Assembly: GCA_003194525.1 (NCBI GenBank)
Contig: NBIV01000175.1
Span: 118,820 to 182,819, forward strand
Direction: 5' to 3'
Source of the DNA: Gracilariopsis chorda
Lineage: Eukaryota > Rhodophyta > Florideophyceae > Gracilariales > Gracilariaceae
Length of the DNA stretch: 64,000 nt
The translations under genes and the position numbers were made by a program. The notes beneath the pieces were generated by a model that was not told the DNA's origin, did no database searches, and was given only the letters and a program-made list of their open reading frames with translations. Below are positions 25,596 to 60,701 of the stretch, one piece after another (position 1 is the stretch's first letter; each line of letters opens with the position of its first letter).

Positions 25596-27422
25596 ATGGG
25601 CGACAAAAGTCCAAATCCCTCCGGGTCACCTGGTCAAGCCTCTGCCTCAGAGAAACAACCTCCTGCAAAATCAGCAAACCAGCCTTCCACAAGTGCACGC
25701 TTCTCCTCTTCCTGCTCAACTCAGTCAGATCACGCCCTTTCAAAGGGGACTATGAACAACAACAACAACCAGCCTCCAAGACCGACTCCAGTCGGGAACT
25801 TCACAACCGGTTTCTGGTCGGTACCATTGCCACAAGGGAGGCGAGCTCCGGCACAGCCGGCCAACATTGGTGCAGCGTCCCAGCATGGGTTCCAACTTCC
25901 ACCAGCGGTGGCTCCTTCCGGACTGATCCTGGTGGCGACTTGGCCTTCTTATAACGCCCTTGTAGGGTTAGATCCGATGAATTGGAGTCACGCCTCTCGG
26001 TTCCGGCTTGCGCCGTGGTTCCATCCCCTCGCTGCCCTCAACGAGGATTTGGTTAAGGCCTATGCGGATGGTTCCGGTACTTTACCGGGGGATCTACCCA
26101 GCCTCGTCACATCGTCTTGGGACTGGTGCCATCGAGTTGCCATCCCGGTCCACCATATCCGAAGAAACTCGGGAGAATCCGCGATTGCGGCTCATGCGGC
26201 GCTGGTGCGGATTGCATATCAACGGCAGAGCTGGGCGCCTTTCGAATTCTCGGTGCCTACCGGCTTTGGCTTCGACGTCAGCCTATTCCGCACGCGCGGT
26301 GAAATTGGTTACGGCGAACGCCTGGCCAGCCTCGATACCCTCGCGTGGAGGAACTTTCCCGCTGCGCGGCAAGAAGCCCTGTGTTGGGAACAAACGATAC
26401 TTTGGGCTGAATTCCGGTACCTTTCTCGGCAGTTCCGGTCCAACTTCCTCCAAGACTTCATCCGTTATGAACGGCGCTGGCAATCCCGATTCGGGTACTT
26501 TGTCCCGTATCAAAACGTGGAGATTGAGCGGATTGCTCCGCCTCACCGATACGGTCAGTATGTCGCGCTACCCGAGTGGTGGAGGTTCCTTGAAGCCTGC
26601 CGGGGTTACTACGTTGATCTCCTACTGGCACTCAAGTACCTCGGTTCCTTTTTGATTTAGGATCCCCGGTCGGGGCTTTGGTCGGTAGTTGTGACGGGGT
26701 GGGCTGCCCGCACTGCGGCGGTTGTCCTCGCTGAGGTTTATGAACAGCATCGACTGTGGTTCATCCAACCGCGTGTGCGGGCTGCTATTCGCAATCTGGA
26801 CCTCAGCGTCCCCCTTGGGGGTATTGCCAACAATGACGAAGTATTCCAATGACTTGGTTTGATCGACAGTATTGACTGGCGCGAGGTCCCGCTGGAACAG
26901 AGCGGTCGGCTTGACGGCGGCGGTGGCGGTACCGGTGGTCCGGGTCTGGGTAGAAACACAGCCCTTGCGGGGGATTTCATCTACTTCGATCCCTGGGAGT
27001 TCCGGGAGATTTCCTCCGAGGAGGCGAGGGAACTCCGCGACGCACCGTGGCACTTGCCGGACGACCACCCGATTGGGTACGTCGATTACGACGATTACTA
27101 CCGTGCGTATAGCAGGGATGACCCGATGGTCGATAACGAACCCGAAGAGCCGGGGGACATGGAAGTAGACGTTGCCGACATGGTCGTAGACGTATCCCCC
27201 GAGGGGGTGCATCTGGTTCCCAGTCCTCCGACGGCGAGCGCCTGACCTTCACTCCCCAGCGGGGGTACAGTCACTGAAAGCGATATCATTGCCCGCTTCC
27301 TCCGCGGAGCGGGTTTAAGCACTGCCGAGGTTTCGGGTGACTTCACCGCGATGGCGGATGCCTTGGCTTACCGCCTGGCGGGTGGTCACGCTCCAGACGA
27401 TGGGGAGGGGTCGAACCTCTAA
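25596..27422 (+). pseudogene. antisense ORF of inner chromovirus (copy 1)
   Basis: About 608 codons in one uninterrupted frame on the strand opposite to pol, broken only by stops at 26658 (TAG), about 26847 (TGA) and 27243 (TGA). There are no frameshifts. It starts at an ATG 61 nt from the LTR edge. An N-terminal Ser/Pro/Gln-rich region (1-110) precedes a Trp/Tyr/Arg-rich folded-looking region with WPSYNAL (about 116), APWFHP (about 138), FGFDVSLFRTRGE (about 225) and GDFIYFDPWE (about 460), then an acidic stretch and a short ARFLRGAGLS tail. The second chromovirus has a homologous ORF at 58808-60701 with every motif conserved in order. There is no signal peptide or convincing membrane segment, so it does not look like env. 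I recognise no family. It converges with pol, whose frame ends 188 bp away. Confidence 0.8.
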
Positions 27423-27609
27423 TCCAGTATCCCGGTCTCTTTCCCTGGCTTAGCCAGTAATGTAGCTTAGCATCACACAGGAGCGCGAGGCTCCTGAGTA
27501 AATTTTCCCGTTTAGAACGGCGTTTTCTCTTTCATTCCCGTCCTTGACGGAGTCCATACAAAAGGGGGTGTACTCCTTCTTTCTTACCTTCCCCGGCTTC
27601 GCGGCGTTT

Positions 27610-30600
27610 TTATCCCACTTGGGCGTTGCACAGCGTAGCTGTATTTGCGGTACCCGCGCTGCGGTGATATTGGGCCACCTTCGAACGAAGGAGGTGTTCG
27701 ATGGGTCCCATGGTGTCCCAGCTTCGGTCATATCCGTACCAACGGACTCGGTATCTTAGAATGCCTTCCTGATTCTAGGTGTGCCCGACGATTCGGTCAA
27801 TCACAAACTCTTGTTTGTATACCTACCGGCCTTGCCATGCTTTGGTGACCTCTCTTGTCAGGGGTTGCCTGATGCACTGGATATTTCCCCTCAGGGGTGC
27901 GTCAGGATGCAACGTGCCGGCTTCGCTCGGAGGATGCGGCACAGAGTGCGGAATACTATCCCTCAAGAGGGTGTCCTCGTAAAACGGTTGCCGCGTACTG
28001 CGGTAATTGGGTCGTACCGCTAGCTTGCGGGGGTCCTCCGTCCTATGTTGATGGTATTCCGGTCGCACCGCGAGCTTGCGGGCATATTGCCGCTTTGACG
28101 GAGTTGTGGAGGTCACTACCTGGTGGGGCTTTCCGCGTCGCGCGGTGATTGGTGCAGGGCGCACAATCTCCGTGGGTTCACGTGACTCCTACGGCATGTG
28201 GCTCTGAACTGCCTCCTTGCGTTCCGCCTCCCCTGGCTTGGGCCTTACACTGTCCGATTGAGCCGTGCACTTCTGTGTTGGCCCCCGGTATCCGGCGGTT
28301 ACTTCTGGTGCTCCGGTGTGTTCCCTCAAACTGCCTGGTGGGGCATGGACAGCTGGCACCGTGGACACCCTGTTCGGGGACTCTGCCTCTAATTGAGGTG
28401 TGATGTCAGCCTCAAGAGGTGCATCATCCGGGACGACCGGTTTAACCCTGGGGACGACGCCAGATTTTTCTGAGAAGCTCGGTATATCACCACGATTGCG
28501 CGGAGACTTTGGCACTTCTATCTCCAAAGTTCGGACAACATTCCCGTTATGAACGGTTCTCAAGTCCGGGGCTGTAGATACAGGGACTAGAGTTGCAAGA
28601 TGTGCATTCCCGCCTTCCTCCCTCAAGAGGGTCTTTTCAATTTCAAGCGTTGCTGGATTTTCAAGGCGTTCGTTGCCTGCTACCAACAGTGTGGATGGTG
28701 CTGAGGAATCCGTTTTGGCGGGAAATTCTGTCGACGACGGTTCTGCGACTACACCCTGGTGAGGGGTCTGCGAAACGATATCGCTATCCTGATTCAGGGA
28801 ATTGCCCTGGTTCATGGGTACGGACTGCGATTTCGGTCCACTCTCCCGTATCATACGGTGTAACTGCGTCGTTCTGGAACCGTGTGTGGGGGATTGCGAG
28901 GATTCATCGACCTTCCGTGTTTCACGGCTCAAATCCCGTTGCAACGGTGATAAATTTCCAGCGTGGCGATAGTTTTCCTCCCCCTCCTTAGACGGAGCAA
29001 GGAGCGTAATAGTAGGATATCCCGCATGGCGGGTGTATATGCGCGCCAAAGGGGCAGTAGTGTTAGGAGTTGAAAAAGGTCCGTTTGGACCTGAACAATC
29101 CGGCCGAGCCGGAGGCTCCGACAAAGTCGGTGAATCTGAGAGGCCCCGAGTATGGTGTGGTAGAGTAGTCGGTCTATTTAGTCCCGGGGTTATCGGCGTC
29201 GCCGAGTCCGTAGAGACGGGTTTCCCTGTTTCCAGGACGACCTCAGACGAGGGGGAAGGGGCAGGTACAACACGATCGCGGGAAATCTGCTCGTGTGCCT
29301 TGCCCATTTCCACTACGACAGTGTCGGAGATAATGTATACCACTTTGAACGGTCCATCCACCACAGGCGAAAGCTTGTGACGCTTCTCCCATTCCAGGTT
29401 ATAATATTCCTTACGTATAAACACGTAGGTATTAGCCCGTATGCGGGGAGCATTTTCTCGTAAACGAGCGTCGAAATCCCTCTTGTACGCCGCTTGCGCG
29501 CGTTCCATAGACTTCCGCGCTGCCGGGACCAGTTTAGTAAGCCATTGCGCCCATTCCTGGCGGTAGCGACCCACAGATGGGAAATTGTCCAAGGTGGCTT
29601 GGGATTCTAACGCCACAGGCGGGGGTGAACGAGATAGAACCAATTCGAACGGTGACACTGCGGTAGTCCGGTGAACTTGTGTATTGTATGCAAATGTTAA
29701 AGCATCTGCATACAAGTCCCAAGTTTTGGGGTGATCAGCAACGCAGGAATGGAGAGAGGCCAACAAAGTCCGGTTGAACCGTTCGACTTGGCCATTACAC
29801 TGGGAATGGTAGGTAGTCATGAACAAGTCTTTCACGTCCAGGATGCGACAAACATCCTGGAAGAACTTGGACGCGAACTGCCGTCCGTTATCGGAGAGCA
29901 CCTCCACAGGAGGACCGTAGACAAAAATCCAGTGCGCTACCAGAGCCTGGGCCATCGTGAAAGCGGTTATCCTCCGAAGAGATACAGTTCGAACAAGCTT
30001 TGAAAAGCGATCGGTGATCACAAGTAAGAAGTTGTTGCCTCTCTTTGTAGTGAGGAGAGGTCCGAGAATATCGATTGCGATAAACTCGAGTGGCGCCCTA
30101 GCAGGGAATAACTTCATTTTCTTCGCGTTCCTGCGGAGCTTCACCCGGATCTTCGAGCATTTGGTACAAAACCACATAGTTGCGTAGCAATCAATCGCCA
30201 TGGCGGGCCAGTAAAAAGCCCTTCGCAGGGTGAGGTAGAGCTTCCTCCCACCTACGTGGCCCCCGAGCTTCGCATAGTGCGAGAGATGTAACACCCGCGA
30301 CTGCAGGGAATGAGGTACCACAATCTGTGGTCGAGCTTCGACCAACCGAACGAGGTAGCCTTTATCGTTCACCTTGAACGGGAGGTCTTCGCCACCGTTT
30401 AAACGGGCACGAATCCTCATACAGAAGGGGCCACCGAATTGTTCTCGGATCAATTCCTCCGGTGAAACCCGTACAAAACTTCCCGGTAAGGGGTGCTCAG
30501 GGGTCTTGCGGGAGGCGAGTAATTTGTCAAAGTCAGCATCTTCATCCCAGTCTTCTGGCCATTCCTCGAACTTCCACCGCGGTTCATACGGTTCTTCAGC

Positions 30601-32997
30601 CATGAAGCATGGAATGTCGTTATCCTCCATTGGGAGTGCTTCCCCATTTGTGGTTACACGCGACAAAGCGTCGGCCTGGGTGTTGAGCGCTCCCTTTTTA
30701 TATAATAATTGGAAGCCACATTCCGCAAGGCGGAGTCTCCAGCGCATAAGGCGGCCCGAAGGATCGGATATGTTCATTAACCACCTCAACGAGGAATAAT
30801 ACGTGTATACGGTAAACTGAACTCCCATAAGATAGGGGCGTAGGGTGGAAAGCGCCCACACGACGGCGAAACACTCTTTCTCCGACACAGAGTAATTCCG
30901 CTCGTGGACATTGAGCGAGCGTGACCAATAACCAATTGGCCTTCGGTCCCCCTCTGGCGTAGTTTGGAAAAGAGCCCAACCAACTTGGTAGTCACTCGAG
31001 TCCGTGTCCACGGAGTACGGGAGTCCCAGTTTGGGTAAAGATAAGATAGTTGCTGACTTGACAGCCTGCTTTAAGGAGTTAAACGCTTCCGATTGCTCGG
31101 GCGTGAATTTTCCCCATTGTGGGAGATTTCCTTTGCGTAACATCGCGTTCAACAGTGCCGCGATATCCGAAAAGTTCGGAATAAACCGTCAGTAGACGTT
31201 GACCAGCCCTAAAAAGGAGCGGAGTTCCGTTTGAGTGCGGGGTTCCTTAGCCTCAACGAGGGACTTGACTCGAGCCTTCTCGATCATTAAACGTCCCGGA
31301 CAGATGATATGTCCCAGATAATTGACAGTATCTGTGAAGAACTCGCACTTCCTCAACTTGAGAGTAATTCCCGCATCGCGGAGCACGGTCAGAAAGTCCC
31401 TGACATGGGTGAGATGTTCGTCCAAATTATTGGAGAAGATGATAATATCATCCAGGTAGACCAGGCAGCTCCGCCACTTGAAGCGGTTCAATAGATTATC
31501 TATTGCACGCTGAAAGGTAGCGGGAGCGTTGGTCAAACCAAACGGCATCCGCTTAAAGCGGTACGATCCTGCCTGGCAGGTGAACGCGGTCTTATCGCAA
31601 TCCTCCTGTCTAACAGGGACCTGCCAATAACCCCAATTGGCGTCCAAAGCCGTGAACACGGTAATGTCTCCCAGGGATTCGATGCACTCGTCCATACGAG
31701 GGATGGGATATTTTTCTCTAACAGTCACGACATTGAGCTGGCGCTAGTCGAGACAAAACCTCCAGGTTCCGTCGGTCTTCAAAACCAGTACAACTGGGGA
31801 TGCCCAGGGTGATTGAGCGGGCTCTATCACACCTGCGCGGAGCATTATGTCCACTTAGGACTGCTCCTCTTCCCGGGCGTTCGGTCCTGCCCTGTAAGAG
31901 GGTTGTGCCATCGGAAGTGCACCCGGTAACAAATCTATCCGGTGTTCCGTAGCATTAATCTCGCCGAGCGAGCCATCCCAAATCGTGGTAAATTCCTGTA
32001 GCATTGCAAGAAGTTTGTCGCGGTGTGACTCTGGCACATGGCCGAGGTCTATATCTTCGAGTGTCTTTATGGGGTCCACTCGGTCAAAACGTGCTGTAAC
32101 ATTGTCCTGTGATACAACTGTGGTCGTCGGTTCCGAGTTACTCGGGGTTTTCGACGTTAAACAACGGTTTCCTCTCCCTCCTTTGACGATAGTTCGTCAG
32201 TGGTGGGGGTGGCTTTCTCAGAAGAGACGGAAATTCCGAGAACATCGGCTGTCGTCATCTTCGTCGGGAGCATCCCAAGGGGGTGTGGAGTGACGCTTCC
32301 AATTACTTGGTTCTTTATCAGATAATGGGGGCGTTGGCCAAGATTGGCAACGAGTATCCGGAAAGGAGAATCTGGGATAACGCGAACAATATTCGCCAGC
32401 GCCAGCTGGTATTTCTCGTATAACGAGGACAGAGGTTGAATAACCCGAAGACCGTGTTGACGGCAATGGACTGGCATCCAGATTTGGGACTCAGGCGGTA
32501 TAGAAGCCGAGGCTGCGACTCGAAGTTTGATGGACTCGCGAGACGCGGGCCGTGGTTCCTGCGCAGCAGGTAGTGGGACTTGCTTCTGCAAAGCACGCTT
32601 CAGCGAGCGACGGACGATCGGGACTGACGATCCGTCGTCGAGTTCCACACGCCTAAGGCGGGGCCTGACTGCGTCGACAAATCTGTCGCAGTAATCACAT
32701 CCCAGTATGATTGGAGCGGCCAATGACCGACAAACAATAAAGACGAGCTTCACCACGAAGGTGCCCAACCGCACGACTAAGTCGACGGTACGCACCGTTT
32801 TTAACGGATTGTTGTTCGCATCTGCGACATCGGGAACCGTTTCAGAATGGATACGAGACCGCACCTGCGGGGATAGCAATGATTCCACCATGTTCTTGGG
32901 GCCGCCAGTGGTATTCGAGTATTTGCTGACCAAAAAACCAGGGGCAATGGTAGTCCGAGTTCCATTTTTCACATCTGGTCTAGATACTCTTTACTAA
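27610..32997 (-). pseudogene. pol polyprotein of inner chromovirus (PR-RT-RH-INT-chromodomain)
   Basis: The C-terminal part of the protease is at about 32990-32600 (PIILGCDYCDRFVDAVRP). A frameshift near 32100 follows, then one frame runs to 27610. RT (about 31850-31250) has LDANWGYWQVPV, MPFGLTNAPATFQRAI and the catalytic VYLDDIIIFS. RNase H is at about 31050-30650. Integrase (about 30400-29350) has an HHCC finger, Asp in FIAIDILGPL, Asp in VLSDNGRQF, Glu in NGQVERFNR, and a GPF-like block. A Pro/Thr/Ser-rich linker of roughly 450 codons precedes the chromodomain (about 27820-27640: QEFVIDRIVGHT, YRVRWYGY). Six in-frame stops (first bases near 31857, 31746, 31191, 28191, 27825 and 27777) make it non-functional, yet there is no frameshift in 4.4 kb. 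Confidence 0.9.
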
Positions 32998-37549: not shown

Positions 37550-39607
37550 CAGGGGGGTCTCATGAATAGCGCACCTTTTTTAGTGCACTGACGAGATAGC
37601 GCACATAAAGGGGGCTTGTCACATATGTTGCCACGTGTACACGTATATCCCTTTGGCAAGGCAGAACACGCTGGTCATGTTCGGAGAGGTGCAAGCCGCG
37701 ATCAAACTCAACTCGTCGCACAAATCAGCCATGGACATCACCTCCACAACCCCAAAGCTTCACGGCACACGCTTAACTCTCTCGCAGAAAGCTAAAGTAG
37801 TGCGACGTCTCAAACAGGGCGCCAGTCATTCACAGCTACAAAACGATTTCGTTTGCTCGCGAAGGACGATCTGCTAGACCAAGGCACAACGTGAGACCAT
37901 TGAGAATGCCCTGCACACACCAAACAACGCATCCCGAAAGTCTTTCCACCTGCCAAGATTCCTAAATATTGCACAACGTCTCTATGAGTTTGTTCACATT
38001 GCTCGATCGGCTAAGTTGCCAATCTCTGCAGCCACATTACAATGCAAAGCAATTGATATCAGGGACAGCCTCATCGAATCGTTACAGACTGAAAAAGAGA
38101 AGGAAGAATTGGTTTCTTTCCAAGCTTCAAACAATTGGGTGCTGGGATTTTCGAGGCGGCACGCCATGAGGTCTATTCGCCTGCATGGCGAGGCTTGGAG
38201 CGTACCGCTCAGTATCGTCGCAACGGGCATAAGCAGGTTAAGAAAACAACTCAATGATTTTGACGCGGATTGTATCTTCAATATGGACGAGACCGGCCTT
38301 TTCTTCAAGCTGTTTCCGAAGAGAACGTACGTCCTGGCAAGTGAAGACCGGAAACGCTTGCGGGCAACCAAGGACATGAAGGCCAAAGCACGCCTATCCG
38401 TCTATGTGTGCTCGGATTCTGCCGGATTACACAAAGTGCCGCTGGCTATCATTGGAGCCGCCAGAAATCCTCGTTGCTTCCGAAAAGGAGAACCCGCAGT
38501 GACCTACTTCAGTCAGAAGAACGCCTGGTCAGATTCTGTAACGTATCGGAGATGGTTTCTAGAAGTGTTTATGCCCTATGTGAGAAGATATACGTCCAAG
38601 AAAGTGGCGCTTGTGATGGACAACTGTGGTCCGCACGCGACAGATGTTCTGGATGTTAATGGTCTGGTTACAATATTCACCCTCCCACCTAATTGTACCT
38701 CTCTATTTCAGCCCATGGATATGGGCGTAATAGCTACCCTGAAGGCGAAGTACAAATCCAAGCTCTTACGAAAGATATTATGTACTGTAGAGGACAGGAA
38801 GGAGTTACGAAAAGCTGCAAAGAATATGAAACCGGGTATGAAAGGCCTGGATGAAGGTCATGATCCGCATATATTGGATGTCACCGAGCTGCTTCGCTCT
38901 GCAGGGGAAAGTGTATCATCGAGGACTGTAGCGAGGTGTTGGACAAAGGCGGACATCTTGCCAAGATGCATGCAAGCTGATCTCGTTGGAGAGCACGGAA
39001 AAACAGATCGCGTAGATCACGCAGCTGGCGATGCTGAAGTGAGAGAACTCTGCACATTGTTGTCTAGTTTGAAGTTGGCTGCCTACCCTGCTTCTGATGT
39101 CGCTACCGATTTGAACGGTTTAGACACTGAAGATGCAGAGTGTGTGAGCAAATGGGTTTCTATTGAAGATGATTTAGAAGTTAAAGAAGCTATGGTTAAT
39201 GACTATCTTGATTCTCTTTACGACGACAGTGGGTCACAAAAAGAGGGAGATGCAGTTAGCGGTGGTGCCTCGATTGAAGATGATGAAGAAGTCTCATCGC
39301 AGAGGGCGCCCCATGTAACTTCCATGGCTGATGTTGGACGGCCCTTCCACGACTCCGAGGAGTACTGTGAGCAGGCAGGTGTTGATGAAGCTTTGTATTA
39401 CCTGCGCAAGGCGAAGGGAGTTTTGTATGACGTGTACAATAACGGAGTCAAGCGGCGTAGGCGTCAGACATTGGTTACGGAACATTTTACGGCTTCGTAA
39501 AGGATCATAATGGATCCCTGTTTAGTGCTCCTTTGATATCGCACATTCGATTTAGCGCACAATAATGCTGTTTGGCATGGGGTTGCGCTATTCATGAGTA
39601 TAGACTG
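37550..39607 (+). mobile_element. pogo/Tigger DNA transposon
   Basis: A 2058-bp element flanked by TA on both sides (37548-37549 and 39608-39609). The ends begin CAG and share ACTCATGAATAGCGCA-type inverted repeats of about 27 bp with a few mismatches. It carries one transposase frame on the plus strand. TA target duplication, CAG ends and the transposase type agree with the Tc1/mariner superfamily, pogo group. Confidence 0.9.
37677..39500 (+). pseudogene. Tigger-like DDE transposase with one premature stop
   Basis: About 608 codons in a single frame, interrupted only by a TAG at 37875-37877. A CENP-B/pogo-type helix-turn-helix region (LTLSQKAKVVRRLKQGASH, about residues 37-55) is followed by a second DNA-binding stretch (LVSFQASNNWVLGFSRRHAM). 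The DDE_1 core has Asp in FNMDETGLFF, Asp in LVMDNCGPHATD and the third Asp in TSLFQPMDMGVI. The C-terminal 200 residues are acidic, with no domain. The premature stop lies between the two DNA-binding regions. The ATG at 38016 could still give a truncated protein with the catalytic core. Cut-and-paste transposition in the nucleus would be its job. Confidence 0.9.
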
Positions 39608-45282: not shown

Positions 45283-48200
45283 GTGATCACTGGATTTACT
45301 ACAACAGTTCGACGTTTAATTTCCTACGTTTGGTCGCGATGTCTGACACGCAGTCAACCGTTGAACGAGGCCACCACACGGATGAATCCTCACCGGAAAT
45401 CACATACCAGGAACCTTCTTTTGTTTCTACTTCCATCAATCATCCACGACTGGTGCGCAAAGATTCCACCTCAATCAGAAAATTTTTTGGACTTTATGAT
45501 CAGTATCGCAAGTAAGTCACCGCTTGCGCTCTACAACTCTCTGTAGTAGACTCTACGACGACAGAACCAGTCGGACCGGTGAATCTCACGCAATTTCTTG
45601 ATCCGGAGTGGCTAGAGTCTATCGTTGACCTCAATCTCATACCGGATCTTTCCGATTCTGACATGGTTACTGATGATGTGCTGCGCACATTTTTGGAACA
45701 GCGATAGCAGACGAAGCGGTAAGCGGACATCTATTTCGCTTTCGGCTCTGGAAGTGCTCATTGAGAAAGAAATTCGAATGGACATGTCCGACACGTCCAC
45801 ATTAATGCGGATGGATAATCTATTCGTGTCCTATTTGTCGCTTTTAAGACGACATGGACTGAAACGGGTCACGACATCCCGCCGCAAAACAGCAATTGGC
45901 CACATCATTTCTGCCGTCAAGCCGAAATATATACGCATAAAGCTCGAATCAAACATTGAATTCTCTCACATGGAACTAAACAAAGATTTCAACCGTTTCT
46001 TCAAACACGCCATGGCCATGTCTCGATCTTTTGACGACCTTGATAATGGACCCACCTCCCGCGGCTCTAGCTCTCGCTCTTGTAAAGAAGGAAAAAGCTC
46101 ATCGTCGGAGAGAACGGCTGAAAACTCCATATCAAGCAGGGCAAACAGTGAGCCACGCAAATCACGTTCACACGGCAGGCCTCCTCCCCCGTGCCCCCAC
46201 TCACCGTGCAAGAAGAAGACATTACGTCACTGGATCGATGACTGTGCTTTATGTACTGATGAGGAGAACCACGAATAAAAGGCTGAGTTTGAGGAGAAGT
46301 AGGCCACTGATGGACTTTCGAAATCCACACGCAGCCAGAAAATTAAGCAAAGGTCCAGCGAGAATAAGGGCACAGTGAAAAGAATGCAGCCTTCGAAAGC
46401 CTCCCACCCAGCCCCGTCCTGCGCCATCACCATATCGGACGGCCAAACCTCCTTGGATGGTACGGGACGTTGTGACGACGGCAGCGACGACAGCATCTTG
46501 TCACCGAGTCTCGCTGAGAAGGCAGCACTAAAACGCATTGGAAGAACTGCTGCCATCAAAACCACTCACCTCTCTTTCGCGCTGAAATCTGGTCCCAACC
46601 GGCAAAGCTTCGCATTTTCTAGGACATGAACAGCACCGCGCACAGTCCTGCATCTTTCTTTAGGCAGTCTGGCTTTGGTCAACATCACGTACTTGTTTGC
46701 GGATAATGACCTTGCATGCGAGGAACTACTCATCGGCTGCCCTGTTCTACGCCATCTTCGTGTAGACACGGAAACGTTACTGGACAAAAATTGGTTTGCC
46801 TTAAATGATGCAGACTGTTCAGATGTAGGAAACCCTATAGTCGGTCGAGGTGAAGGTTACACTAGTAGGTTAATGACCACCAGACTACACAAACATTCAA
46901 GCACCACAACTGCAATTCCCATCAAACCACCGCAACCAAACCGTCCGAGAGTCCACTATCACGCATAAAAGCATTTCCTGGACCCATTCCCAGATTCCTC
47001 GCTTCTTGACCCTCTCGACAGCGACCAGCACGACGAAATCAAGTCAGCTGTCAACGAAATTGTGGAGAACGCGCGACACTCTGGCATGACCGACGGTCAG
47101 GTGACCAAACTGCGCAGCGCTCTGGAGGACAACATGGACATCTTCCGAGTCTCTCTCTAGCACGATCACCGGAAAAATCCAGAACACTAAGGACAGAGTT
47201 ATCTCCAGAAGCCAAACTAGTCCACGTCAGGCTTCGCTACTACTCGCAGGAGCAGCAAAAGTTTCTATAACTCTTTGTCGAGGATCTCCTTCGAACCGGA
47301 ATGGCCTACCCAAACCCAACACCTCCATGGGTCAGTGCCCCCTTGATTTTGCCGAAATCTGGCCCAGCTCGTTTCCGATTCACTTTCGACCTACGTCCAG
47401 TGAACAAGTACACCATCAAGCATCAAATCTCCATGCCAACCATTGAGCAGGAGCTGTTGAAACTCGCACACTCTAAATTCTTCGCCACGTTTGATCTATC
47501 TCACGGATATTGGCAGTTCCCCCTCCACGTAAACTCTCAGGCGCTACGGTGTTTCATAACACCCTAGGGAATTTCTTCCCCCACGCGAGTCCTTCATGGC
47601 ACAACCAATGCCCCAACTCACCTTCAATCAGTCCTCGCTGAGATATTTCCAAAGGAACTACGTCACTCCTTCGTGTACTGGCTTGATGGCATTCTACTAC
47701 ACAGCAGAACAGTGGAAGGACTCCTTCAACAAATTCGGAAGCTTTTCCAGGTCTGCAAGGAACTCTCAATCCGTCCCCACCCAAAAAGGTGTATTCTGTT
47801 TTCAACTTCAATCAGGTGGTGCGGAAGAATTATCTCCGCATCAGGAGTACGGTATGATCCACGACAACTAAATGGTCAGCTAGCAATGGAACCTCCGACC
47901 AATGGAGGCCACCTGCAGCAATTCCTGTGTGCACTGCAGTGGGTTAGGATGAGCATCCCCAACTTCTCCAAGATCATACTACCGTTGAAAAACTTTTTGA
48001 AAAAGGTGCAAAAGAAAGCTGGAAAGCGCACAAAGACTTCTGTGGCAAAATGTAGATCTTGCGGCCCTTGGTTGGTCCGAACTAGAAACCCAGGCATTCC
48101 GAGCTTGCAAAGAGGCACTTGCCCACAGCGTCACACTCGCACACAGGAAGGAGAATCAGAGACTCGTTATATACACAGACGCTTCCGACAACCTATGGTC

Positions 48201-48436
48201 TGGCATCATAACTCAAGTTCCGTTCTCCGACCTCACCAAACCACCCGAAAAACAGCAGCACAGTCCTCTACCATTCTGTTCAGGTTTCTTTAACACCACC
48301 CAACTGGGTTGGTCTGTCTTGGAGAAGGAAGCGTTTGCCATACTGTCTACGTTGGAATGGATGCATTGGATTGTAGCCACCTCAACCCGATTTGAACTCT
48401 ACACCGATCAAAACAATTTCATATTCCTTTTTGAAG
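45283..48436 (+). pseudogene. outer gypsy element: gag, protease, reverse transcriptase and first half of RNase H
   Basis: Gag starts at the ATG at 45339 and continues through stops and frame changes to about 46300. It ends with a zinc-knuckle-like CPHSPCKKKTLRHWIDDCAL. Protease (about 46440-46970) has the active-site-like CDDGSDDSI and the downstream LLIGCPVLRHL. RT starts near 47301 (FTFDLRPVNKY, ATFDLSHGYWQFPL). Its catalytic box reads YWLDGILL, so the second Asp of the usual DD pair is Gly. RNase H begins (VLEKEAFAILSTLEW, ELYTDQNNFIFLF) and is cut by the inner LTR at 48437. Its other half resumes at 24748 on the minus strand. Many stops and frameshifts make it dead. Confidence 0.85.
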
Positions 48437-49221
48437 TGCAATGCCCTCAGAGAGGGATTCTTGGTACTTGGTTGATTTCCCGAATGTCTCGGTAATGTAG
48501 TCATTTCATGAACTACGACCACTAATAGTAGATTTGACACGTGGGACACGGAAGAGTCAATTGGCGGTTGGCCACAGTACTGGGCATGAACCACCAAAGT
48601 GGAGTAGTTTAGTTAATTCTATTTATTATTTTTACACCCATATCTGGGATGGTTAGTACTTAGTGCGCCGGCGGGTTGGCGTTGCACCAGTAAAACCTCC
48701 CCAAAAAGGGACCCCAACCTGGGGAATTGGCTCTAGACCTGACCGCTTTCGCGTGTTCTCTACTCCTCTTTGGAGGGAAGCACCGTTGCATACGGGAAGT
48801 CTAACCCCCTTGCCTATCTAAAGGACCCAAGTATTCGGATTGTTATTCCAGCTGTCTTGGTGTTCGCCTTGTATAAGGTTTATTTACCGGCACTGCAGTT
48901 AGTCTTCGTCACGACACTCGTGACTCAGCTCCCCCTTACTTTACCTTTATAGGGTGGCTTTCCCGCTACCCACGGCTCGTGCTCGCGCGTGCCACTAACG
49001 TGGAAACCTCACCTCTCTAGAGGACGACCACCCCCATACATCGCTCCTGCAGATACCCGATTCTTGCCTCAACCTCCCTGCACAAGTCGCAATGGGTGGC
49101 CTCGGCCTTAAAACCCGACATAGTCGTGCCACTCTTGGGAGGGCTCTACCCAACTGGGCTCACCTCAAACGAGGAAAGATCCCGAACATCTTTCGGTGCA
49201 CTCCCGCTTCCGGGCATTGCA
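48437..49221 (+). repeat. 5' LTR of inner chromovirus
   Basis: 785 bp, TGCAATGCCC...GGGCATTGCA; the inverted partner of 24749-25534, clearly diverged from it by eye. It sits inside the RNase H reading frame of the outer element. Confidence 0.9.
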
Positions 49222-49229
49222 TTACGAAG

Positions 49230-49247
49230 TGGTCTCCTGACTTAGAA
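49230..49247 (+). other. candidate primer-binding site
   Basis: TGGTCTCCTGACTTAG begins 8 nt after the LTR end. TGG is the complement of the tRNA 3' CCA, and this is where minus-strand synthesis should start. The tRNA was not identified. Confidence 0.45.
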
Positions 49248-49333
49248 TCGGTTTTGGTGTTTGGTTCCCTCTTTCGAGGTTTTGTTTCTTTCGTTTGTTT
49301 TCCGGAAGTTCCGTTGTTTTCCGGTCGTAACGG

Positions 49334-51790
49334 TTGGCCCTCATGTCGAGGAAGCCCTCCTCTGCGGAGCCTGCGACTACGCGCAGTCGCTCCCACAATG
49401 GTGAAGATAACCCCGAAGTTCGGTTCGTTTCTCAGCTCCCGACTAGGGCTAAATCCAGCCATGCTGGGGGTGCCTCGTCTAGGACTCCAAACCCACCCCC
49501 GGAACCCCGGAACTCCACGTCGACCCTGTTATCGAATGCCGTGGATGGTGCTCATCCGGCTCCGGCCATGGCTGCCGCCGCACCTGAAACCCGTCTGACG
49601 GGCGATAAAACCCCCAGGGGAATTCCCTGGAATCTCAGGTTCACGCTTTGTGGACCGCCCACGACACCCTTGTCGGGGAAGTACAAACCCTCCGTGAGGT
49701 GGTGATGGACACCCCTACAAAGGTGGTCACAGAGGATCTCCGTATCTTACGGTCCGATTTCAACTCTATGTTAGAGAGTTTGGGGCAACCCGCCACCTTC
49801 ATAGAAGGAGTTGACTCTCGATTTGATCGAGTTCGTTCCCGTCTGGAGACGTTAGAGCAGTTTATCCTCATGCATAAACCGTTCCCGGATGATCCGTAAC
49901 CAGCCGCGTCACACCACGAACAGCATGCTGGAAGAAAGAAGCGCCGCTATAACCGGAAACACAACGAGATCACTCGGATTCTGATTCTACGACATCATAG
50001 GATTCATCCCGAAACGGGTCAGATGGTTCCAGTTCCTCGGACCCTGATTCGGAGGACGAGAAACGAGGCCGTTCTTCCCGCTCTAAGCGGTCATCCGCCA
50101 CCCAAGGTGGAATTCGGACCCGCAGAAAAGGGGAGAAGACACCCTGGCCTCAGGGAATTCAAACCGACGAACCCGTTGTATCGGAAACTATTTTCCTACC
50201 GTTACTACCGGCTCGAAGATTCCTCTTCAGGACGTACACCCGGTGGCACAGGGAAGGTGAAAGAGTGCATAAAACGTATGCAACTCTCACTTCGTAACCA
50301 GTATTTTACTGGAGAAGAACCAATTATGGTGTTGCACTTTCTTTCCCGCTTTGTAGCGGAAGCCGATATCCTCAGAATGAACGAGGGACAAGACTATTTG
50401 GCATTACTGTATTTCTTACGGTGAGTGGCAGAGGACCAGTACACCTCTGTCAGAGGGTCATCTGGTGCCTCAGAGGGAGGAGTAACCTGCTGGCCGGAGT
50501 CGGTGCAATATTTATTGTGCACCTATGCCACCAATACCGCCATTCAGGGGGCAATCCTCGCTTTTCGAGATACTCGTCAGCTCTCAGGCGAGAGTGAAAC
50601 CGATTACTCGGAGCGCCTTGAAAAGGCCTTCCACTGTTGTGGGAATGTATACCCCGCAGGGGAACGTTGTACCATGTTCATCGATGGCCTTGACCCGACA
50701 ATCCGGAGTCTTGTCAATCGTTACCGCGAGGACAAGCGGGGGGTCACCTACCTCGAGCTTGTTCAACATGCTCGAGCGGAAGGGGAATCAATCCGTGCAA
50801 GAATTCCGAATCTTCGGTCTAGACCCGCCAAGGCGTTGGTGCTGGAGAGTGACAGCTCATCGCCCTCGCTTTTTGTGGGTAGAACTCCCCAACCGGAATA
50901 CGACAACGTGCATTTTGCACAGGGAGATGATGGTCTATACCAACCACGGACTTACCGTCAACGACGGAGGACACGTTCGAAACGGTGCAAGACAACCCCG
51001 TATTGTACGTGGGGAACAATCGCGTTCAGCCGCCACCAGTCCCGTTCATGAACGGCCAATCCCGTTATCAACGGCCTGGATGGAATGAAACCCGCCCGGC
51101 GGTACACTTCTCCGATGCTCGGGATATTAACCGGCCCGTCGCCGTGTTGGCTCTAATTCGCCACCTTCGTTATACCCATGGCCATACATCCCCTCAGTGT
51201 CTGTGCTCACTGAAGGATATGGCCAAGATGGTGGCAAATTACGAGGCCCTCACTCCAGAGAAGAAACGTTCCGTTCCGACGGCTTCCTACCTCCGTGCTA
51301 AAACGGACTTCTCGCATGCCTTGCCAGATATCCTGTGTGCGCGGCTAGCTTCAATTAACCCGAATCGGGAAGTCGCGCAAACGTCCGACGCAACCACCGC
51401 CTATGCGGATAAAAACCCCGGCCCCCGGAACGAAGCTCTCGTGGTCGAGGATCCTGGACTACTGCCTACGGCGGGAACCTCCCAGGAATACTAACTGAGG
51501 GAGTCTCCGCTTCGGGAGAGGCGTCCTCAGAGATGAGCCTGTTGACGCCCGAGGCGTTGCCGCCTCGCTCCTTGGTGAAAATCCTTTCAAGGAAGGACAC
51601 CGCAGACGCGGACTCTGCACACCTTTCTGTGCTGCGTCGCCCGTGAATAAGGAGTAAAAACCCCCGGGTCCCGGATGTATTCTTGGTCATGGTCAAGCGC
51701 AACTACAAGGTTTACGCCGACCCTGGCCTTGACACCCATTTTATGGTGAGATTTCTAACAGTCATGGACACAGGTGCAGGGATGATGTTT
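49334..51790 (+). pseudogene. inner chromovirus, 5' half: gag and protease start
   Basis: Gag runs through three frames: 49334-49705 (disordered Ser/Pro/Ala-rich), 49648-51051 and 50985-51494. The capsid-like core has the retrotransposon gag pattern (LSGESETDYSERLEKAF, then GLDPTIRSLVNRYRED) around 50580-50740. A His/Cys cluster near 51170-51210 may be a degenerate zinc knuckle. The protease begins at about 51690, with the active site VMDTGAGMMF at about 51760, and homology ends within ten codons. The remaining protease and pol are at 33000 on the opposite strand. Stops and frame changes make it non-functional. Confidence 0.85.
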
Positions 51791-54984: not shown

Positions 54985-55805
54985 CTACCTCTCAAAGGTG
55001 CAGCTCCTAAAGGTTTGTGATAAGGCAGACAACCGGAGTAGTATCACTTCCGGCTCTGCGCAGATGCGGAAGAACAAGTGAGTCCCGAGATAGAAACACT
55101 TGAGTGCTGCTGATTATTGTGGCGGTTGACCTACGTGTACCAGCTGCGACTATCATCAGTTTACAGTGGACATGTGGCCTAGTCGTTTTGAATGTGACAG
55201 GTTATGGGCCCAGACATTCCTGGGGTACAGTGTTCGATTCTCTCCAGTCCAGCTGCCACTGCACTTGCACACGATGCTTACCATTCCCACCATTCTTCGC
55301 ACTCCACCCTCGTAGTCCAGGGGCATTACCGCGGGTGATGCGCACTGTGGTGGTTGATATACGTGTACCAGCTGCGACTATCATCAGTTCACACCGGCAA
55401 TGTGGCCTAGTCGTTCTGACTATGACAATCATCACCATGTACAATGGTGCAACAGAATAAGGTGAAGAGATAATGCCTGACCACATTTCAGAAGGTGTGA
55501 ATTGCTGCACAAAAGACGTTATGAGTGTGAAATAGACGGATAACTAGCTCATGTCTGCGGCACGCTACTCTAAGACGACTACGAACTTTACGCGAGGTTT
55601 TGTGAGCTCGCACTGCTCGCAAGCAGCTCGCTGAGCTCTCTGCAGGACAATAAACTTCAAGCCTGCCTCACTCCGGAAAAAAGCCCTGAAGAAGAAGGGC
55701 CGGCGGGAGGATGATTACTCCCGACTACGTTTTCTGGCGCTTGGAGACGACAAGGCTCTACTATGCCCGTTTCGCACGCGTCTTCTACTACACAATAGCT
55801 CAGTT
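54985..55805. other. no gene; holds an 82-bp direct repeat
   Basis: Apart from the direct repeat (55118-55199 and 55346-55427), this may include the 5' end of the copia-like element, because gag-like coding starts just after it and an AATAAA lies at about 55649. No LTR pair could be defined. Confidence 0.4.
55118..55427 (+). repeat. two 82-bp direct repeats
   Basis: 55118-55199 and 55346-55427 share most bases, including gtgtaccagctgcgactatc, separated by 146 bp. They could be remnants of very short LTRs or a local duplication. Confidence 0.75.
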
Positions 55806-57818
55806 ATGGGCCCAGAGCCCTTTTTGTCTACAATGCCAAATTCGCACTACATTCCAAAGTTCGAAAGCGCGTATAATGTACTTATGTGGCGTCACTATAT
55901 ATCTGAATGGGTTGACACAATCTGCATAGCAGCGGAAAAGGGCCTGATGAACAATAGAAAACAAGTTTCACCATACTTGGACGTCTGCTAGTCGAACAAG
56001 GTCTTTCTCCGGCGCAAAAGAGTATTGTTGAAGAAACTCAAGCAGAAGATCCAATTGACTTTCGCCAAGATGACCAAATTCAGGCCGTCCAGGAAATAGT
56101 TGACCTCATTGCCGTGGAACCTCCGATTGCTATGGTTAATCGTTTGATATCTTCGTTCAACAAATTTTCTAGATCTCGTCGTCGTAAGCAAGAAGACTTG
56201 GTTGCATTTGTGGACCGCTTCCATGGACTGGCTTCTACGCACCTTATTCATACGAGATTTGCGACCTCCAGCCATAATAAAGAAGTGTTGGGAATTACGT
56301 TAATAAATAATGCCCACCTACCCGAGAATACGCTCTGCAACACAATTCTTCAGCTTTTGTCGCAAGCTTAATCTCGTCTAGATCAAGGACAAGTGGTTGT
56401 CGACGGCATTACAGTGGGGTTTTCGGTCATCGAGAAGATTAGAGAGGTTTCCAACTTCCTTATCAGCACGTTAATTGAAATTCCCGAAGATAACGAGTCT
56501 TTGAAAACTCTTCTGCTGGATTGTCGGAGGAACATCAAAGAGATTTCCGACAGGCTAGCGCTGCAAACCGCTAGTCTTCCTACGAAGAAAGGAGACAGTA
56601 AGCCTGAACATGTCAAGGCGACCTCCAAATCCCCAACTCCAGCAGTTGTATTGCGGATGGATGACGCCGTTTCGGTTCTTTACTCTCTCTCTTTGGCGAC
56701 AAAGAAGGCTTCGGCTGAGATTTCACAAAACGATATCGACGCTATGGTTCAGGAACCTGTCCAAAAAGCACTCGTGTCTTATGGAGTTGGCGCTACAAAG
56801 CCGGTAGCCCGCAACAAGCCCTTGCCCTCCAGTTACCTTCCCGGAAAGACAAATAAGAGAAATCGTTCGTCTTCTGGGGCCTCTAAGGCCAAAAGCGGGA
56901 ATGTTGGTCGTTCCAAGAGACCAGACAAACGCACTCATGGATTCTGTTGGGACTGCTGTTCACGAGAACACTTCTGCAACTCGAAAGATTGCTCATTCAA
57001 TGGTGGGGAGACCTAAATTGATAAGATGCATCGATGGCTATGGGAAGCACAGAAAAGAAGAAGAGTTCTGATGCGTTTTTTCGCAAGGGCTCTACGCCCT
57101 CGAGCGGCAGTCAAGCCTAGTCCTTTGGCGTGGAGCAAAGCGGTCCAATCCATGGAGGGATGACCCCAGCCCGGCTGGTCTGGTCGGAGCCCCCGAAATG
57201 TTGGGGGCTTTCAATCGGCTGTTCGTGTAGCTTCGGCACTTGGAATAACCTTCGAACTTCCCCCACTGGACCTAGAACCTTTCTACCATGGGTACGGAAC
57301 CAACTGTGATGACGCCCGTATTGTGTTTGAAATTTGCGACCTTCCAGTAGTGAACGTTGAAGTTCAGCAGGCGTCGATTCCATTTTATATGGTAGATGGG
57401 GATGGTTTGTTGCTTTTAGGCAACGATCTACTGCACAAAGGCAACATACTCCGCAAAGATTGGGTTTTTATCCTTCCAAAAGGCGTACTGCCCGACTCTC
57501 AGCTAAGCCTCCACACATATAGCTCACGACTTCTAGGTGACCCTGAGGACACCATAAGAACGAGGCTATTTATAGTACCGACTTCCGACGAATCCATTGG
57601 TTCTTACTTCCATTCGTATCGAAGATTCATTGAGAATGCAACTTCTAAGGCTCTACAGGAGGAATATACAGACAGCAAAGTTTGTCGCGGGTTCGCTGTG
57701 AAGCTTCACAGCTTTACTCAACTGACCATTGATGACATTTCTGAGGTGTGCCGGCGTGCGGGCGTGTTGACCCCCGTGCTTCAACAGGCATTGAAGGCTG
57801 CTGTGGAGAAGTGTGTGG
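55806..57818 (+). pseudogene. Ty1/copia-like gag-protease-integrase remnant
   Basis: A gag-like region (55806-57016) changes frame at least once and ends in a Cys/His cluster CWDCCSREHFCNSKDC, like a zinc knuckle. A protease-like segment follows (about 57200-57480; VRVASALGITFELPPLD, FYMVDGDGLLLLGNDLL). Soon after comes an integrase-finger-like segment (about 57690-57818; KLHSFTQLTIDDISEVCRRA, AVEKCV). Protease followed directly by integrase is the Ty1/copia order; gypsy elements have RT between them. The class is therefore inferred from order, with moderate confidence. The 3' part is displaced by the LTR of the chromovirus at 57819. Confidence 0.55.
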
Positions 57819-58747
57819 TGCAATACCACACGCGGAAAGGATCCCGCGACAGCGGCAAAGTCACCCAAGGTGTCCGAGCCTTGCTCCCTTGGTGAGGGCG
57901 GCTCAGAGGTAGAGCCCTCCGAACGTGACCGACACGAGTCGGATGTAGGGCCGAACGGTCACTTCTCGCACAGCGCACGGAGGTGTGGGGAGAATCGGAT
58001 CTAGCGCTCGACGGACAGTCGATCAGTGTGCAACTCGGTGTTGCCGGTGGTCTGGTGGAGTCCGCTGTATGCTGCGGCGCGGCGAGTGGAACACACACGA
58101 ATGAGGGAACGATCCGTACAACGGTATCCTCTAGGAAAAAGAAATGAGGGGTGGGGAACGAGCCGCACGGCCGGCGCAGACTCGTGACGAGCAATAGATA
58201 TCCCGAGACGTCGGGGCCAAACCTGATACAGGGCGGAGTAGAAACAGTCCGTATGACGGTAAACAGAAGAAGAAACAACAAAAGAAAACAGAAAGTAGTC
58301 CGTAAGTAACGGTGGTATCACTCCTTGATGTGCAAGGGGGGTGACGGAGCCGGATCGGTAGCAGCACTCCCCTAGGTTGGAGTCGTAGCCGTATACCAAC
58401 GGTCAAAGTCAGAGCCAAAACCCTTGTTGAGGTTTTCCTCCGTAGGGTCGGCGGCGAGTGCCGCCACCTAAGTACGGCCACTGTAGTGTGGATTACTAAC
58501 TAAAAATAACTAATTACCCCGGGTGCACCGGGCCTGACTTCCACGTGTGCGTGTTGGCTCACTTGGCATGAGCCGTCCACTCAGGCGGTGTGCACTACAC
58601 GTGTTACCCACAAGTACCCCCTTCATAGGGGCATCTCCCATATAATGGGTTAGCCCAATACACCTCATGTATTCCGTATCCCAACGGCTAACCACGCATC
58701 TTATATGTAGAGCGATTTGATTCCCTCTACCTCCGGAGGCTATTGCA
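57819..58747 (-). repeat. 3' LTR of second chromovirus
   Basis: 929 bp. In the element's direction it begins TGCAATAGCC and ends GGTATTGCA, the same TGCAATR...YATTGCA ends as the inner chromovirus LTR. It interrupts the copia-like integrase frame. The left outer flank is TGTGG; the matching duplication would be beyond the window. Confidence 0.75.
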
Positions 58748-58765
58748 CCACATCTCCCCCTCCTG
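58748..58765 (-). other. polypurine tract of second chromovirus
   Basis: AGGAGGGGGAGATGTGG on the minus strand abuts the LTR, matching the tract of the inner chromovirus. Confidence 0.7.
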
Positions 58766-58807
58766 AGGTGAAAACACTGGAACAACTTCGGCGACTTCCA
58801 TCCAAAG

Positions 58808-60701
58808 ATGGCCATAAATAACCGAGAGGACTCGAGCGATGCAACCGACTCATCGGAGAGCCAACGCGAACTCGCGCTTGTTCCTTACCATCCTTTTCCA
58901 CGCCATCCAACGACAGCTGCGAGGAGCTCCAACCAACCACAAACCAACCCGTCATCGGGTCCTTCCTCTCCGCGAATCCCGCGGTATCCGAGGCGCACTC
59001 CGACTGCTCGGGTATATGTTCCCGTGCAGTCACGGTTTCGTTTGGCTCCCTTGCCACCTCCGCTCGCGACGGGTCCACCATCGGTGGCTCCGAGTGAGGA
59101 CATCCCCGCAGGCGCGGGTCAACCAAACCAATCGTTCCTCCGCGATTGGAGCGACGCACCCGGCGCGTCGATGTCTGCCGCTTCTAGTGGGTGGCCAACG
59201 TATGGCGCCTTGCGCATCCGGACTCCGGCGAGGCATTCCGAGTGGTTCGCTCGGGCTCCTTGATTCGATCCAGAGGCTGTTCGGAACACTCCGCTCATCG
59301 ATTCGTATGCGGTGGACGGAATCCTACCCGGTAGGCTACCGGTGAGCGTTGTCCGGTCGTGGGACTGGTTGGCGCACGTTGCGCTCTCCACGCCACTACT
59401 GTGGTGGGCGTCAAACGAAACCGAACATCGGGCGAGAAGTGAGATGGCCCGATTGGGCTATCGCCGATACCATCGGTTGGCAAACGAAGTGCCCGTTCCG
59501 TCGATTTATGGGTTCGACGTCGCGTATTACCGTACTTACGGAGAAGCCTCCTATGGAGACCGCTTATACGGGGTGATACTAGAGTTGGGCCAGTACTCTG
59601 GAAGTGTCCAGCCGTACCAGGACCTGATTCTCTGGACACGACCGATTCTCCGGGCTGAGTTCCTGTACCTCCGCAAGAGTTCACGCGGTGAGTTCTTCGA
59701 GATGGTCCGCTTTGAGCGGAAGCAACGTTCCCGTCGGGGGCTCCTGGTACCATACCAGCACATCGAGATCGAATGCCTCTCGTCGAGGGCCTGGAATCGA
59801 TACGTTCCGCTGCCTACTTTCTGGCCTGCGGTGGAAGTCCCTCGAGGGTGCAACGATGAGTTGCCTCCGTGTCTCACGTACGTGTACTCATGGTTCTTGC
59901 ACAATCCGCCTCGTGGTCTCTGGAGTCTCCTAGCGACGGAGTGGACCGTCCGGGTTGCAGCCTTCCTCCTGTGGGAGGTGTACGACAAGTACCGGGTCTG
60001 GTTCATTCCAGAGTTGCTCCGCCATTCCATTCGCGGTTTGGATCTCTCCGAGGTACTCGGTTCCGTGCGTAATGCGCGAGAAGCCACCGGGTTGGTGGAC
60101 GTGATCGACCAGGTCGACTGGGACACTGTACCGGCAACTCAAGCGTCGGAAGGGATCCGCCGTCGTTGGGATAAGTCTCCTGGACGGAATGTCGCTGCGG
60201 GCGATTTCGTATACTTCGACCCGTGGCAATGTGAGCAGATATCCGCTAGCGAAGCGGCTGAGCGGCGCCGTGCGGAACGGATTATCCCCAATGATCATCC
60301 AAGGGGCTTCGTGTTCGTCGAGGAAGACGAGTGTGGCGAGGAATATGAGGAAACCACTGAAGCGGGGTCACCCATGTCAGATGGCGACGGCGTGGTCGAG
60401 GAGATCGACATCACCGACAATGTTGGGGCATCCAGTGGTGCTGGTGACATTCCCTCGTGTGGGGGCGATGCTCCAGTGGCTCCTCCTTCCCCGGTGGCGG
60501 GGGGGGGGTGCGAACAACAGTAGCACCAATCCGCAAGTTGCAGTAGTCCGCCAATTCCTCGCTGGAGTTGGTGTACCCGTACCAGATACGGTAACCACCC
60601 TTGCGCAGTTGCAAGCGCTCGCCTCCGAATACTTTCGGGGAGGAGGTGGCGGTGGTAACTTTGGTGGGTACTTCTCCGGGATGGGAGGAAATCTTCCCTA
60701 A
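58808..60701 (+). pseudogene. antisense ORF of second chromovirus (copy 2)
   Basis: About 630 codons on the strand opposite to pol, starting at an ATG 60 nt from the LTR edge. It is broken by one nonsense codon (TGA at 59261, at the Trp of the APWF motif that copy 1 keeps) and one frameshift in a run of G at about 60500. Motifs in copy 1 order: GWPTYGAL, FDPEAV, RSWDW, YGFDVAYYRTYGEASYGDRL, LVPYQHIEIE, GLWSLLATEW, GDFVYFDPWQ and NDHPRGF. An acidic segment follows, then a tail with VRQFLAGVGV ending in Gly-rich sequence. Its N-terminal 110 residues are Ser/Pro/Arg-rich. No known domain. Its end lies 229 bp from the end of pol. Confidence 0.8.

What the first reader, a model, noticed from the sequence alone, without database searches (positions are those of the whole stretch)
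25596..60701. Conserved ~600-codon antisense gene in a chromovirus lineage
Both chromoviruses (copies at 25596-27422 and 58808-60701) carry a long ORF on the strand opposite to pol, between the chromodomain end and the 3' LTR. The start codon lies 61 and 60 nt from the LTR edge. The ORF converges on pol with gaps of 188 and 229 bp. The proteins share many motifs in the same order (WPSYNAL/WPTYGAL, GFDV..RT.GE..YG.RL, VPYQ..EIE, GLWS, GDF.YFDPW, DHP.G) although the elements differ strongly elsewhere. Each copy has only a few disabling changes. Antisense ORFs are known in a few plant LTR elements, but this protein belongs to no family I know and has no env-like features. It would be transcribed from the 3' LTR against pol. 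It could regulate the element (antisense control), act in packaging or integration, or be a captured host gene.
Basis: partly seen in the sequence, partly recalled or inferred. Interest (0 to 1): 0.88.

Follow-up and report, generated by a model that had tools for sequence, protein, structure and literature searches.

The report
Antisense orphan gene in seaweed retrotransposons
A large group of mobile elements in a red seaweed genome carries, on the strand opposite to its own replication genes, a conserved gene for a protein of unknown fold, most likely a helper or regulator of the element that works at a distance rather than only on the copy that encodes it.

Summary
The window lies in a red alga, Gracilariopsis chorda by a named protein record. 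Both chromoviruses carry a long ORF antisense to pol, between chromodomain and 3' LTR. It belongs to a family of at least 264 loci here, many uninterrupted: no stop in 77 of 100 and 69 of 73 best-scoring matches. Pol converges on it in 57 of 60 loci examined.

It codes for a protein: the plus frame has the lowest pN/pS of six frames in 7 of 7 family pairs, and median dN/dS falls from 0.78 between near-identical copies to 0.27 between families. The core has a confident predicted fold (pLDDT 91, pTM 0.90) with no significant match in Pfam, the PDB or viral models. AS and pol distances correlate. Two copies share one deletion of the gene, yet sit at different sites with identical LTR tails: apparently such an element moved, so the gene is dispensable in cis.

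Best reading: a trans-acting accessory protein, comparable in position to the antisense genes of Grande, Retand and Boty. Expression and function are untested.

The parts
24744..25539 (-). 3' LTR of element 1 (ends TG...CA); outer edge flanked by CTTTT (minus strand)
   Evidence: inverted match to 48432-49225, 94%
25542..25552 (-). polypurine tract of element 1 (reads TCCCCCTCCTT on +)
   Evidence: sequence
25596..27422 (+). antisense ORF copy 1: 609-codon frame, three internal stops (a decayed copy)
   Evidence: 86% identical over the compared 433 aa to the stop-free match at C375 (L034)
27423..27612 (.). tail-to-tail gap between antisense ORF and pol (contains the pol stop at its right end)
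   Evidence: (relative L034: 187 bp)
27613..32891 (-). pol of element 1 (RT, RNase H, integrase, chromodomain), decayed
48432..49225 (+). 5' LTR of element 1, displaced by an inferred inversion; preceded by the same CTTTT
50125..51311 (+). gag of element 1, displaced with the 5' LTR
   Evidence: 70% and 56% identical to the gag ORF of the C83 element
57814..58752 (-). 3' LTR of element 2
58754..58764 (-). polypurine tract of element 2 (reads CTCCCCCTCCT on +)
58808..60701 (+). antisense ORF copy 2: one internal stop and one later frame change; open frames 58772-59263, 59264-60523 and 60105-60701
   Evidence: 94-96% identical over 419 aa to stop-free matches at C127 and C99
60702..60930 (.). 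tail-to-tail gap of 229 bp
60931..64000 (-). pol of element 2 (integrase and chromodomain; runs off the window)

Best explanation
The antisense ORF is an accessory gene of a chromovirus lineage of Gracilariopsis chorda. SHOWN: it codes for a protein of about 600-660 aa in uninterrupted copies, with an Arg-rich, mostly helical core of about 360 residues with a confident predicted fold, an acidic linker in most members, and a conserved C-terminal helical hairpin. It has evolved under purifying selection between families and has diverged largely together with pol. SUPPORTED BY ONE CASE: it is dispensable in cis, because two copies that lack its core by the same deletion sit at different sites. 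INFERRED: it is expressed as its own mRNA, started in or next to the U3 end of the 3' LTR upstream of an ATG about 55-80 nt inside the LTR edge, and ended in the tail-to-tail gap before pol. INFERRED: the protein acts in trans on elements of its lineage, most likely in the nucleus as a regulator of their transcription or integration, as is proposed for the antisense genes of Grande and Retand.
For: At least 264 distinct loci (union, merged). No stop inside 77 of 100 matches and 69 of 73, both best-scoring subsets. Convergent pol directly downstream in 57 of 60 distinct loci examined. Between families, codon position 3 differs most, and the plus frame has the lowest pN/pS of six frames in 7 of 7 pairs (0.42-0.70). 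Its 0 stops in 928-1158 codons per pair (both sequences counted) are by choice of open frames; the five other frames of the same stretches hold 17-52 stops each. Median dN/dS 0.78 (dS 0.02-0.1, 20 pairs), 0.65 (0.1-0.2, 43), 0.54 (0.2-0.6, 18) and 0.27 (1.5-10, 177) of 487 non-independent pairs of 32 open segments; 219 more are saturated and 10 fall outside the bins. pN/pS is lowest in the core in 4 of 5 pairs. AS and pol distances correlate: Mantel r 0.65 (0 of 5000 permutations, 17 loci), 0.52 (8 of 5000, 12 loci after dropping 5 close relatives). Core model pLDDT 91.3, pTM 0.90. Two AS-less copies share one junction, have 383 of 383 identical LTR bases, and differ in flank from the LTR edge on; the C10 copy has an open pol frame of 1712 codons.
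Against: There is no RNA evidence. No TATA-like site is shared upstream of the ATG: present in w2/A and L027; only one at -15 in F; none in w1, B, C and D; the group-G stretch, printed but not scanned, holds TATATAAGG very close to a possible ATG. A simple NLS pattern is absent from 19 of 21 sequences, some of them without their N-terminus. The core is close to charge-neutral, which points to no particular nucleic-acid surface. Very recent copies show dN/dS of about 0.8-1. Congruence with pol is not complete: L009 is nearest to group A by the antisense protein (72%) but to L024 by pol (64%), so some exchange between families is possible. Dispensability in cis rests on one deletion in two copies; gene conversion is not excluded, the 5' ends of these copies were not read, and the C43 copy has a stop in pol.
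Confidence: 0.6

Rival explanations
1. A structural or replication helper: the protein works in the virus-like particle or pre-integration complex (packaging, nuclear import, integration), supplied in trans by intact copies to deleted ones.
For: Co-divergence with the chromodomain end of pol. Constraint in a folded core. AS-less copies could be complemented in trans.
Against: The C83 element already has a sense gag with a CCHC knuckle (motif read by eye) and RT, RNase H, integrase and chromodomain. No significant fold match to any solved structure or viral model (whole-protein model only). A particle protein would have to come from a separate antisense message.
Confidence: 0.22
2. Control by the antisense RNA: the transcript silences or interferes with the sense genes (dsRNA, transcriptional interference), and the reading frame is secondary.
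For: Antisense transcripts with such roles are discussed for other elements (PMC7264820, passages).
Against: Protein-level constraint, 16 invariant residues in 21 sequences, a confident fold. The ORF lies tail to tail with pol, with gaps of 187-404 bp where both ends are intact.
Confidence: 0.07
3. A captured host gene that still serves, or is derived from, a cellular function.
For: Capture is a discussed origin of extra ORFs (PMC7264820, passages). The family has no match to other elements or viruses in the libraries searched.
Against: 57 of 60 loci have convergent pol next to them. No credible Pfam match (best chance E-values 0.15-0.22 and 0.037). No relative confirmed in one genome per prokaryotic species or in IMG/VR with the two-pattern scans used. 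A catalogue of eukaryotic genes or of predicted cellular structures could not be searched as such.
Confidence: 0.08
4. Chance, or constraint from the other strand: a long antisense frame opposite a coding minus strand.
For: The two window copies are decayed. One minus frame (-1) has a pN/pS only somewhat above that of the plus frame (0.53-0.82 against 0.42-0.70), as expected when it shares the variable positions.
Against: Every other frame has 17-52 stops per family pair, and pN/pS is lowest in the plus frame in 7 of 7 pairs. More than 260 loci.
Confidence: 0.01

Closest known systems
Antisense additional ORFs (aORF-3R) of plant Ty3/gypsy elements: maize Grande gene23, rice RIRE2, Silene Retand (review PMC7264820: section 5 and passages read; Vicient 2025 PMC11963269: abstract and passages read)
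   Same: Gene between pol and 3' LTR, antisense to gag-pol, present in most copies of a family, of unknown function; proposed regulatory protein; Grande's product is reported there as nuclear and transcribed from its own promoter.
   Different: Retand is a non-chromovirus lineage reported from flowering plants and its antisense ORFs mostly carry TRP28 (PF04195). Here the element is a chromovirus of a red alga, and the protein has no Pfam match and an unmatched predicted fold. The POL-3'LTR region of Retand is reported as 2.9-6.6 kb; here it is about 2.1-2.4 kb in the window copies.
brtn, the antisense gene of Boty-like elements of Botrytis cinerea (Zhao 2011; title seen in the reference list of PMC8365987; named in PMC7264820; original paper not read)
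   Same: Antisense gene in a fungal LTR element at the same position.
HTLV-1 HBZ and related antisense retroviral genes (mentioned in PMC11963269 and PMC7264820; details recalled)
   Same: Antisense protein gene read from the 3' LTR side.
   Different: HBZ is a bZIP protein (recalled); no bZIP or other Pfam family matched here, and the predicted core is globular.
Env-like third ORFs of LTR elements
   Same: Third ORF between pol and 3' LTR.
   Different: Opposite strand. Best 19-residue hydropathy is 0.78-1.85; 4 of 21 sequences exceed 1.6, at a helix that in the aligned model lies inside the core.

Membership tests
Chromovirus (Ty3/gypsy with chromodomain) | RT, RNase H, integrase in that order with a chromodomain at the C-terminus of pol | tested here: met
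   Pfam in one 1674-codon frame of the C83 element: RVT_1, RNase H, H2C2, rve, Chromo. In the window: RNase H, H2C2 and rve in element 1, Chromo in element 2, with chromodomain ends of both matched by tblastn
Chromovirus (Ty3/gypsy with chromodomain) | LTRs with TG...CA ends, polypurine tract, short target duplication | tested here: met
   C83 LTRs 780 bp, 99.1% identical; polypurine tract; CTTTT on both outer sides of element 1 (read by eye)
[quoted passage not shown]
   57 of 60 loci, which were chosen by the ORF. From the pol side, 12 of the 13 best pol matches have the ORF; the 13th (C464, pol 1145 bases from the contig start) has no reported match, and in group B two copies lack it by deletion
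Antisense additional ORF between pol and 3' LTR (aORF-3R) | transcribed in antisense, with its own promoter (as reported for Grande) | not testable with these tools
   no RNA data; no shared TATA-like site
Retand TRP28 proteins (PF04195) | match to Pfam PF04195 | tested here: not met
   no such match at E <= 1 for the 9 sequences of A1, nor at E <= 10 for 5 further queries (HMMER's filters drop most weak matches)
Boty brtn proteins | sequence similarity to brtn | not tested
   brtn sequence not held
Envelope-like ORF | sense orientation | tested here: not met
   antisense
Envelope-like ORF | transmembrane or signal segments | tested here: inconclusive
   hydropathy only: 4 of 21 sequences exceed 1.6 in one helix inside the predicted core; no dedicated predictor run
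Relocated Gag | element lacks a sense gag | tested here: not met
   sense gag ORF with CCHC knuckle in the C83 element; gag also at window 50125-51311
HBZ-like antisense regulators | bZIP domain | tested here: not met
   no Pfam bZIP match

The most novel reading that the evidence does not exclude
An old chromovirus-borne protein family with a fold not seen in solved structures acts in trans as a brake or governor on its own lineage. Its loss by deletion is tolerated because other copies supply it, which would make the lineage a natural system of helper and freeloader elements with antisense-coded copy-number control.
Probability: 0.18. Interest if true: 0.82.

Novelty: new variant of a known kind. 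Interest (0 to 1): 0.6.

Why it matters
In what was read here, antisense accessory genes of LTR elements are described from flowering plants and fungal Boty-like elements, with functions still unknown. Here is a case in a red alga, in chromoviruses, with at least 264 loci, many uninterrupted, a protein with a confidently predicted but unmatched fold, and natural deletion copies that have apparently moved. That combination makes the open question, what antisense genes do for retrotransposons, testable by comparing AS-bearing and AS-less copies within one genome. It also adds an orphan protein family to annotate: the one named record is simply 'hypothetical protein'.

Tried and rejected
Minus-strand constraint was rejected. 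A relocated gag was considered and rejected when the sense gag was found. Env was rejected on orientation. A captured host gene was not supported. A SAP- or HeH-like DNA-binding reading of the C-terminal hairpin was tested with eight C-terminal pieces and gave only weak, inconsistent Pfam matches (best 0.013, an unrelated family; Ish1 0.14), so I do not use it. The alignment-based protein search found fewer relatives than single queries (3 proteins; 6 and 8). A shared antisense promoter motif was not found. The first congruence script had out-of-frame queries for group C and was replaced. The first fetch next to the AS-less elements was on the wrong side of pol and was followed.
Full report
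WHERE THIS IS. The window is G000:C175:118820-182819 of a 91.3 Mb genome in 1081 contigs. A protein record named 'hypothetical protein BWQ96_10156 [Gracilariopsis chorda]' (P0001) matches family members of this genome at 93-99%. Its longest contig, 70517 bases, has exactly the length of contig C355, which holds the closest copy. The host is therefore almost certainly that red seaweed.

THE OBSERVATION. Both chromoviruses carry the antisense frame. Copy 1 (25596-27422) is 609 codons with three internal stops; the two other frames of the same stretch have 12 and 19. Copy 2 (58808-60701) has one internal stop and a later change of frame. Both are decayed relatives of frames that are uninterrupted elsewhere: stop-free matches to copy 2 at 96% (C99) and 94% (C127), and a 687-aa open frame 86% identical to copy 1 at C375. 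Layout in the pol sense: gag, pol with chromodomain, tail-to-tail gap, antisense ORF (read backwards), polypurine tract, 3' LTR. In 6 of the 8 starts laid out the simple pattern finds the tract, 53-80 nt before the ATG; in L034 and L065 it does not. Which ATG is used is my choice in each family.

HOW MANY. Five searches with different queries gave 100, 99, 71, 68 and 74 matches, which merge to 264 distinct loci when starts within 2.5 kb are joined. This is a lower bound: only the best candidates are scored, not in that union, adds more of a family with 609-aa open frames. No stop occurs in 77 of 100 and 69 of 73 matches; these are best-scoring subsets, not a census. In one search only 7 of 99 matches are stop-free. 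Its query begins 79 codons before the ATG, inside the LTR, and several loci with a stop there (C8, C24, C57, C110) have none; many group-D relatives are nevertheless really broken.

SAME PLACE EVERYWHERE. Of 63 loci with the ORF examined (the two window copies left out), 60 have the C-terminal end of pol downstream on the opposite strand. Three of the 63 are re-fetches, so 57 of 60 distinct loci. The three without are L010, L021 and L049; L010 still holds pol RT sequence on the opposite strand. These loci were chosen by the ORF. From the pol side, of the 13 best pol matches, 12 have the ORF; the 13th, C464, has none reported, with only about 0.9 kb of contig left where it should be. The C83 element shows the whole order: LTRs of 780 bp, 99.1% identical, a 754-codon sense frame with gag and a CCHC knuckle read by eye, and a 1674-codon pol frame with RT, RNase H, integrase and chromodomain.

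IT IS A PROTEIN GENE. Between families, differences pile up at codon position 3. The plus frame has the lowest pN/pS in all seven pairs tested. Its lack of stops is by choice, since open frames were taken; the five other frames of the same stretches hold 17-52 stops each. Median dN/dS falls with distance: 0.78, 0.65, 0.54 and 0.27 for dS 0.02-0.1, 0.1-0.2, 0.2-0.6 and 1.5-10 (20, 43, 18 and 177 of 487 pairs of 32 open segments; 219 saturated, 10 outside the bins; pairs are not independent). That is the pattern of a gene selected along propagating lineages and nearly neutral after insertion. Values of dS above 2 are rough, so the 0.27 is an order of magnitude. pN/pS is 0.33-0.53 in the core, 0.67-0.85 in the N-terminal part, 0.66-0.92 in the linker and 0.49-0.71 in the C-terminal hairpin in five pairs; in one pair the hairpin is slightly below the core. 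AS and pol C-terminal distances correlate (r 0.65 over 17 loci, 0 of 5000 permutations; r 0.52 over 12 loci after dropping five close relatives, 8 of 5000; L022 dropped for short matches). One acquisition followed by co-divergence is the simplest reading. Against a strict version, L009 is nearest to group A by the antisense protein (72%) but nearest to L024 by pol (64%).

A NATURAL DELETION. In the C10 element, pol is open over 1712 codons but about 1.9 kb with nearly the whole antisense ORF is missing. The two ends overlap by about 10 bases of shared sequence, as expected of template switching. The same junction, with one mismatch, occurs once more, at C43. There, 383 of 383 compared bases of the 3' LTR are identical to those of C10, and the flanks differ from the LTR edge on. 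The simplest reading is that an element without the gene has transposed, which makes a strictly cis-acting role unlikely and points to a product that acts in trans or is optional. It rests on one deletion in two copies; the 5' ends were not read, and the C43 copy has a stop in pol. Six group-B loci carry a long stretch of the ORF (C305, C6, C1, C336, C355, C18).

MECHANISM. I commit to a trans-acting accessory protein made from its own antisense message, more likely regulatory and nuclear than structural. Coding, constraint and position are shown; dispensability in cis is supported by one case. Expression, localisation and the regulatory step are inferred from the arrangement and from the reported behaviour of Grande's gene (nuclear product, own promoter; passages of PMC7264820). 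Upstream of the ATG I found no TATA-like site shared between families, so the promoter remains open.

KNOWN RELATIVES. [quoted passage not shown] In Retand they mostly encode TRP28 proteins, in flowering plants and in a non-chromovirus lineage (PMC11963269, abstract and passages). The present family meets the positional definition but not the TRP28 one. In the listings I saw no paper on this gene or on antisense ORFs in red algal elements. The library holds open-licence papers only, and the G. chorda genome paper was not in these lists. Passages of PMC5408684, PMC6431247 and PMC5970526 did not describe such a gene. Hence 'new variant of a known kind'.

Noticed in passing
window 24739-25539 and 48427-51311: Element 1 looks split by an inversion. 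Its 3' half lies on the minus strand up to about 32.9 kb, and its 5' LTR and gag on the plus strand at 48432-51311. Both outer LTR edges carry the same CTTTT, and the LTRs are 94% identical.
   Followed up: partly
window 23689-24390 (-) and 47244-48011 (+): Integrase and RT pieces of another Ty3/gypsy lineage (24-25% identical to the C83 pol) flank the two ends of element 1, as if element 1 had inserted into it between RT and integrase before the inversion.
   Followed up: partly
G000 C10:149097 and C43:141655 (L069, L070): AS-less derivative with a shared deletion junction; possibly a freeloading subfamily. C279:69078, whose pol end is 98-99% identical to group B, also has no reported antisense match next to it; C732:5451 and C575:25020 are unassigned pol matches without one. 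None of these three was resolved.
   Followed up: partly
window 37878-39500 (+): A 540-codon open frame that reads like a Tigger/pogo (DDE_1) transposase by eye; no search was run.
   Followed up: no
window 55118-55199 and 55346-55427: Two direct copies of an 82-nt unit, 87% identical, 228 bp apart.
   Followed up: no
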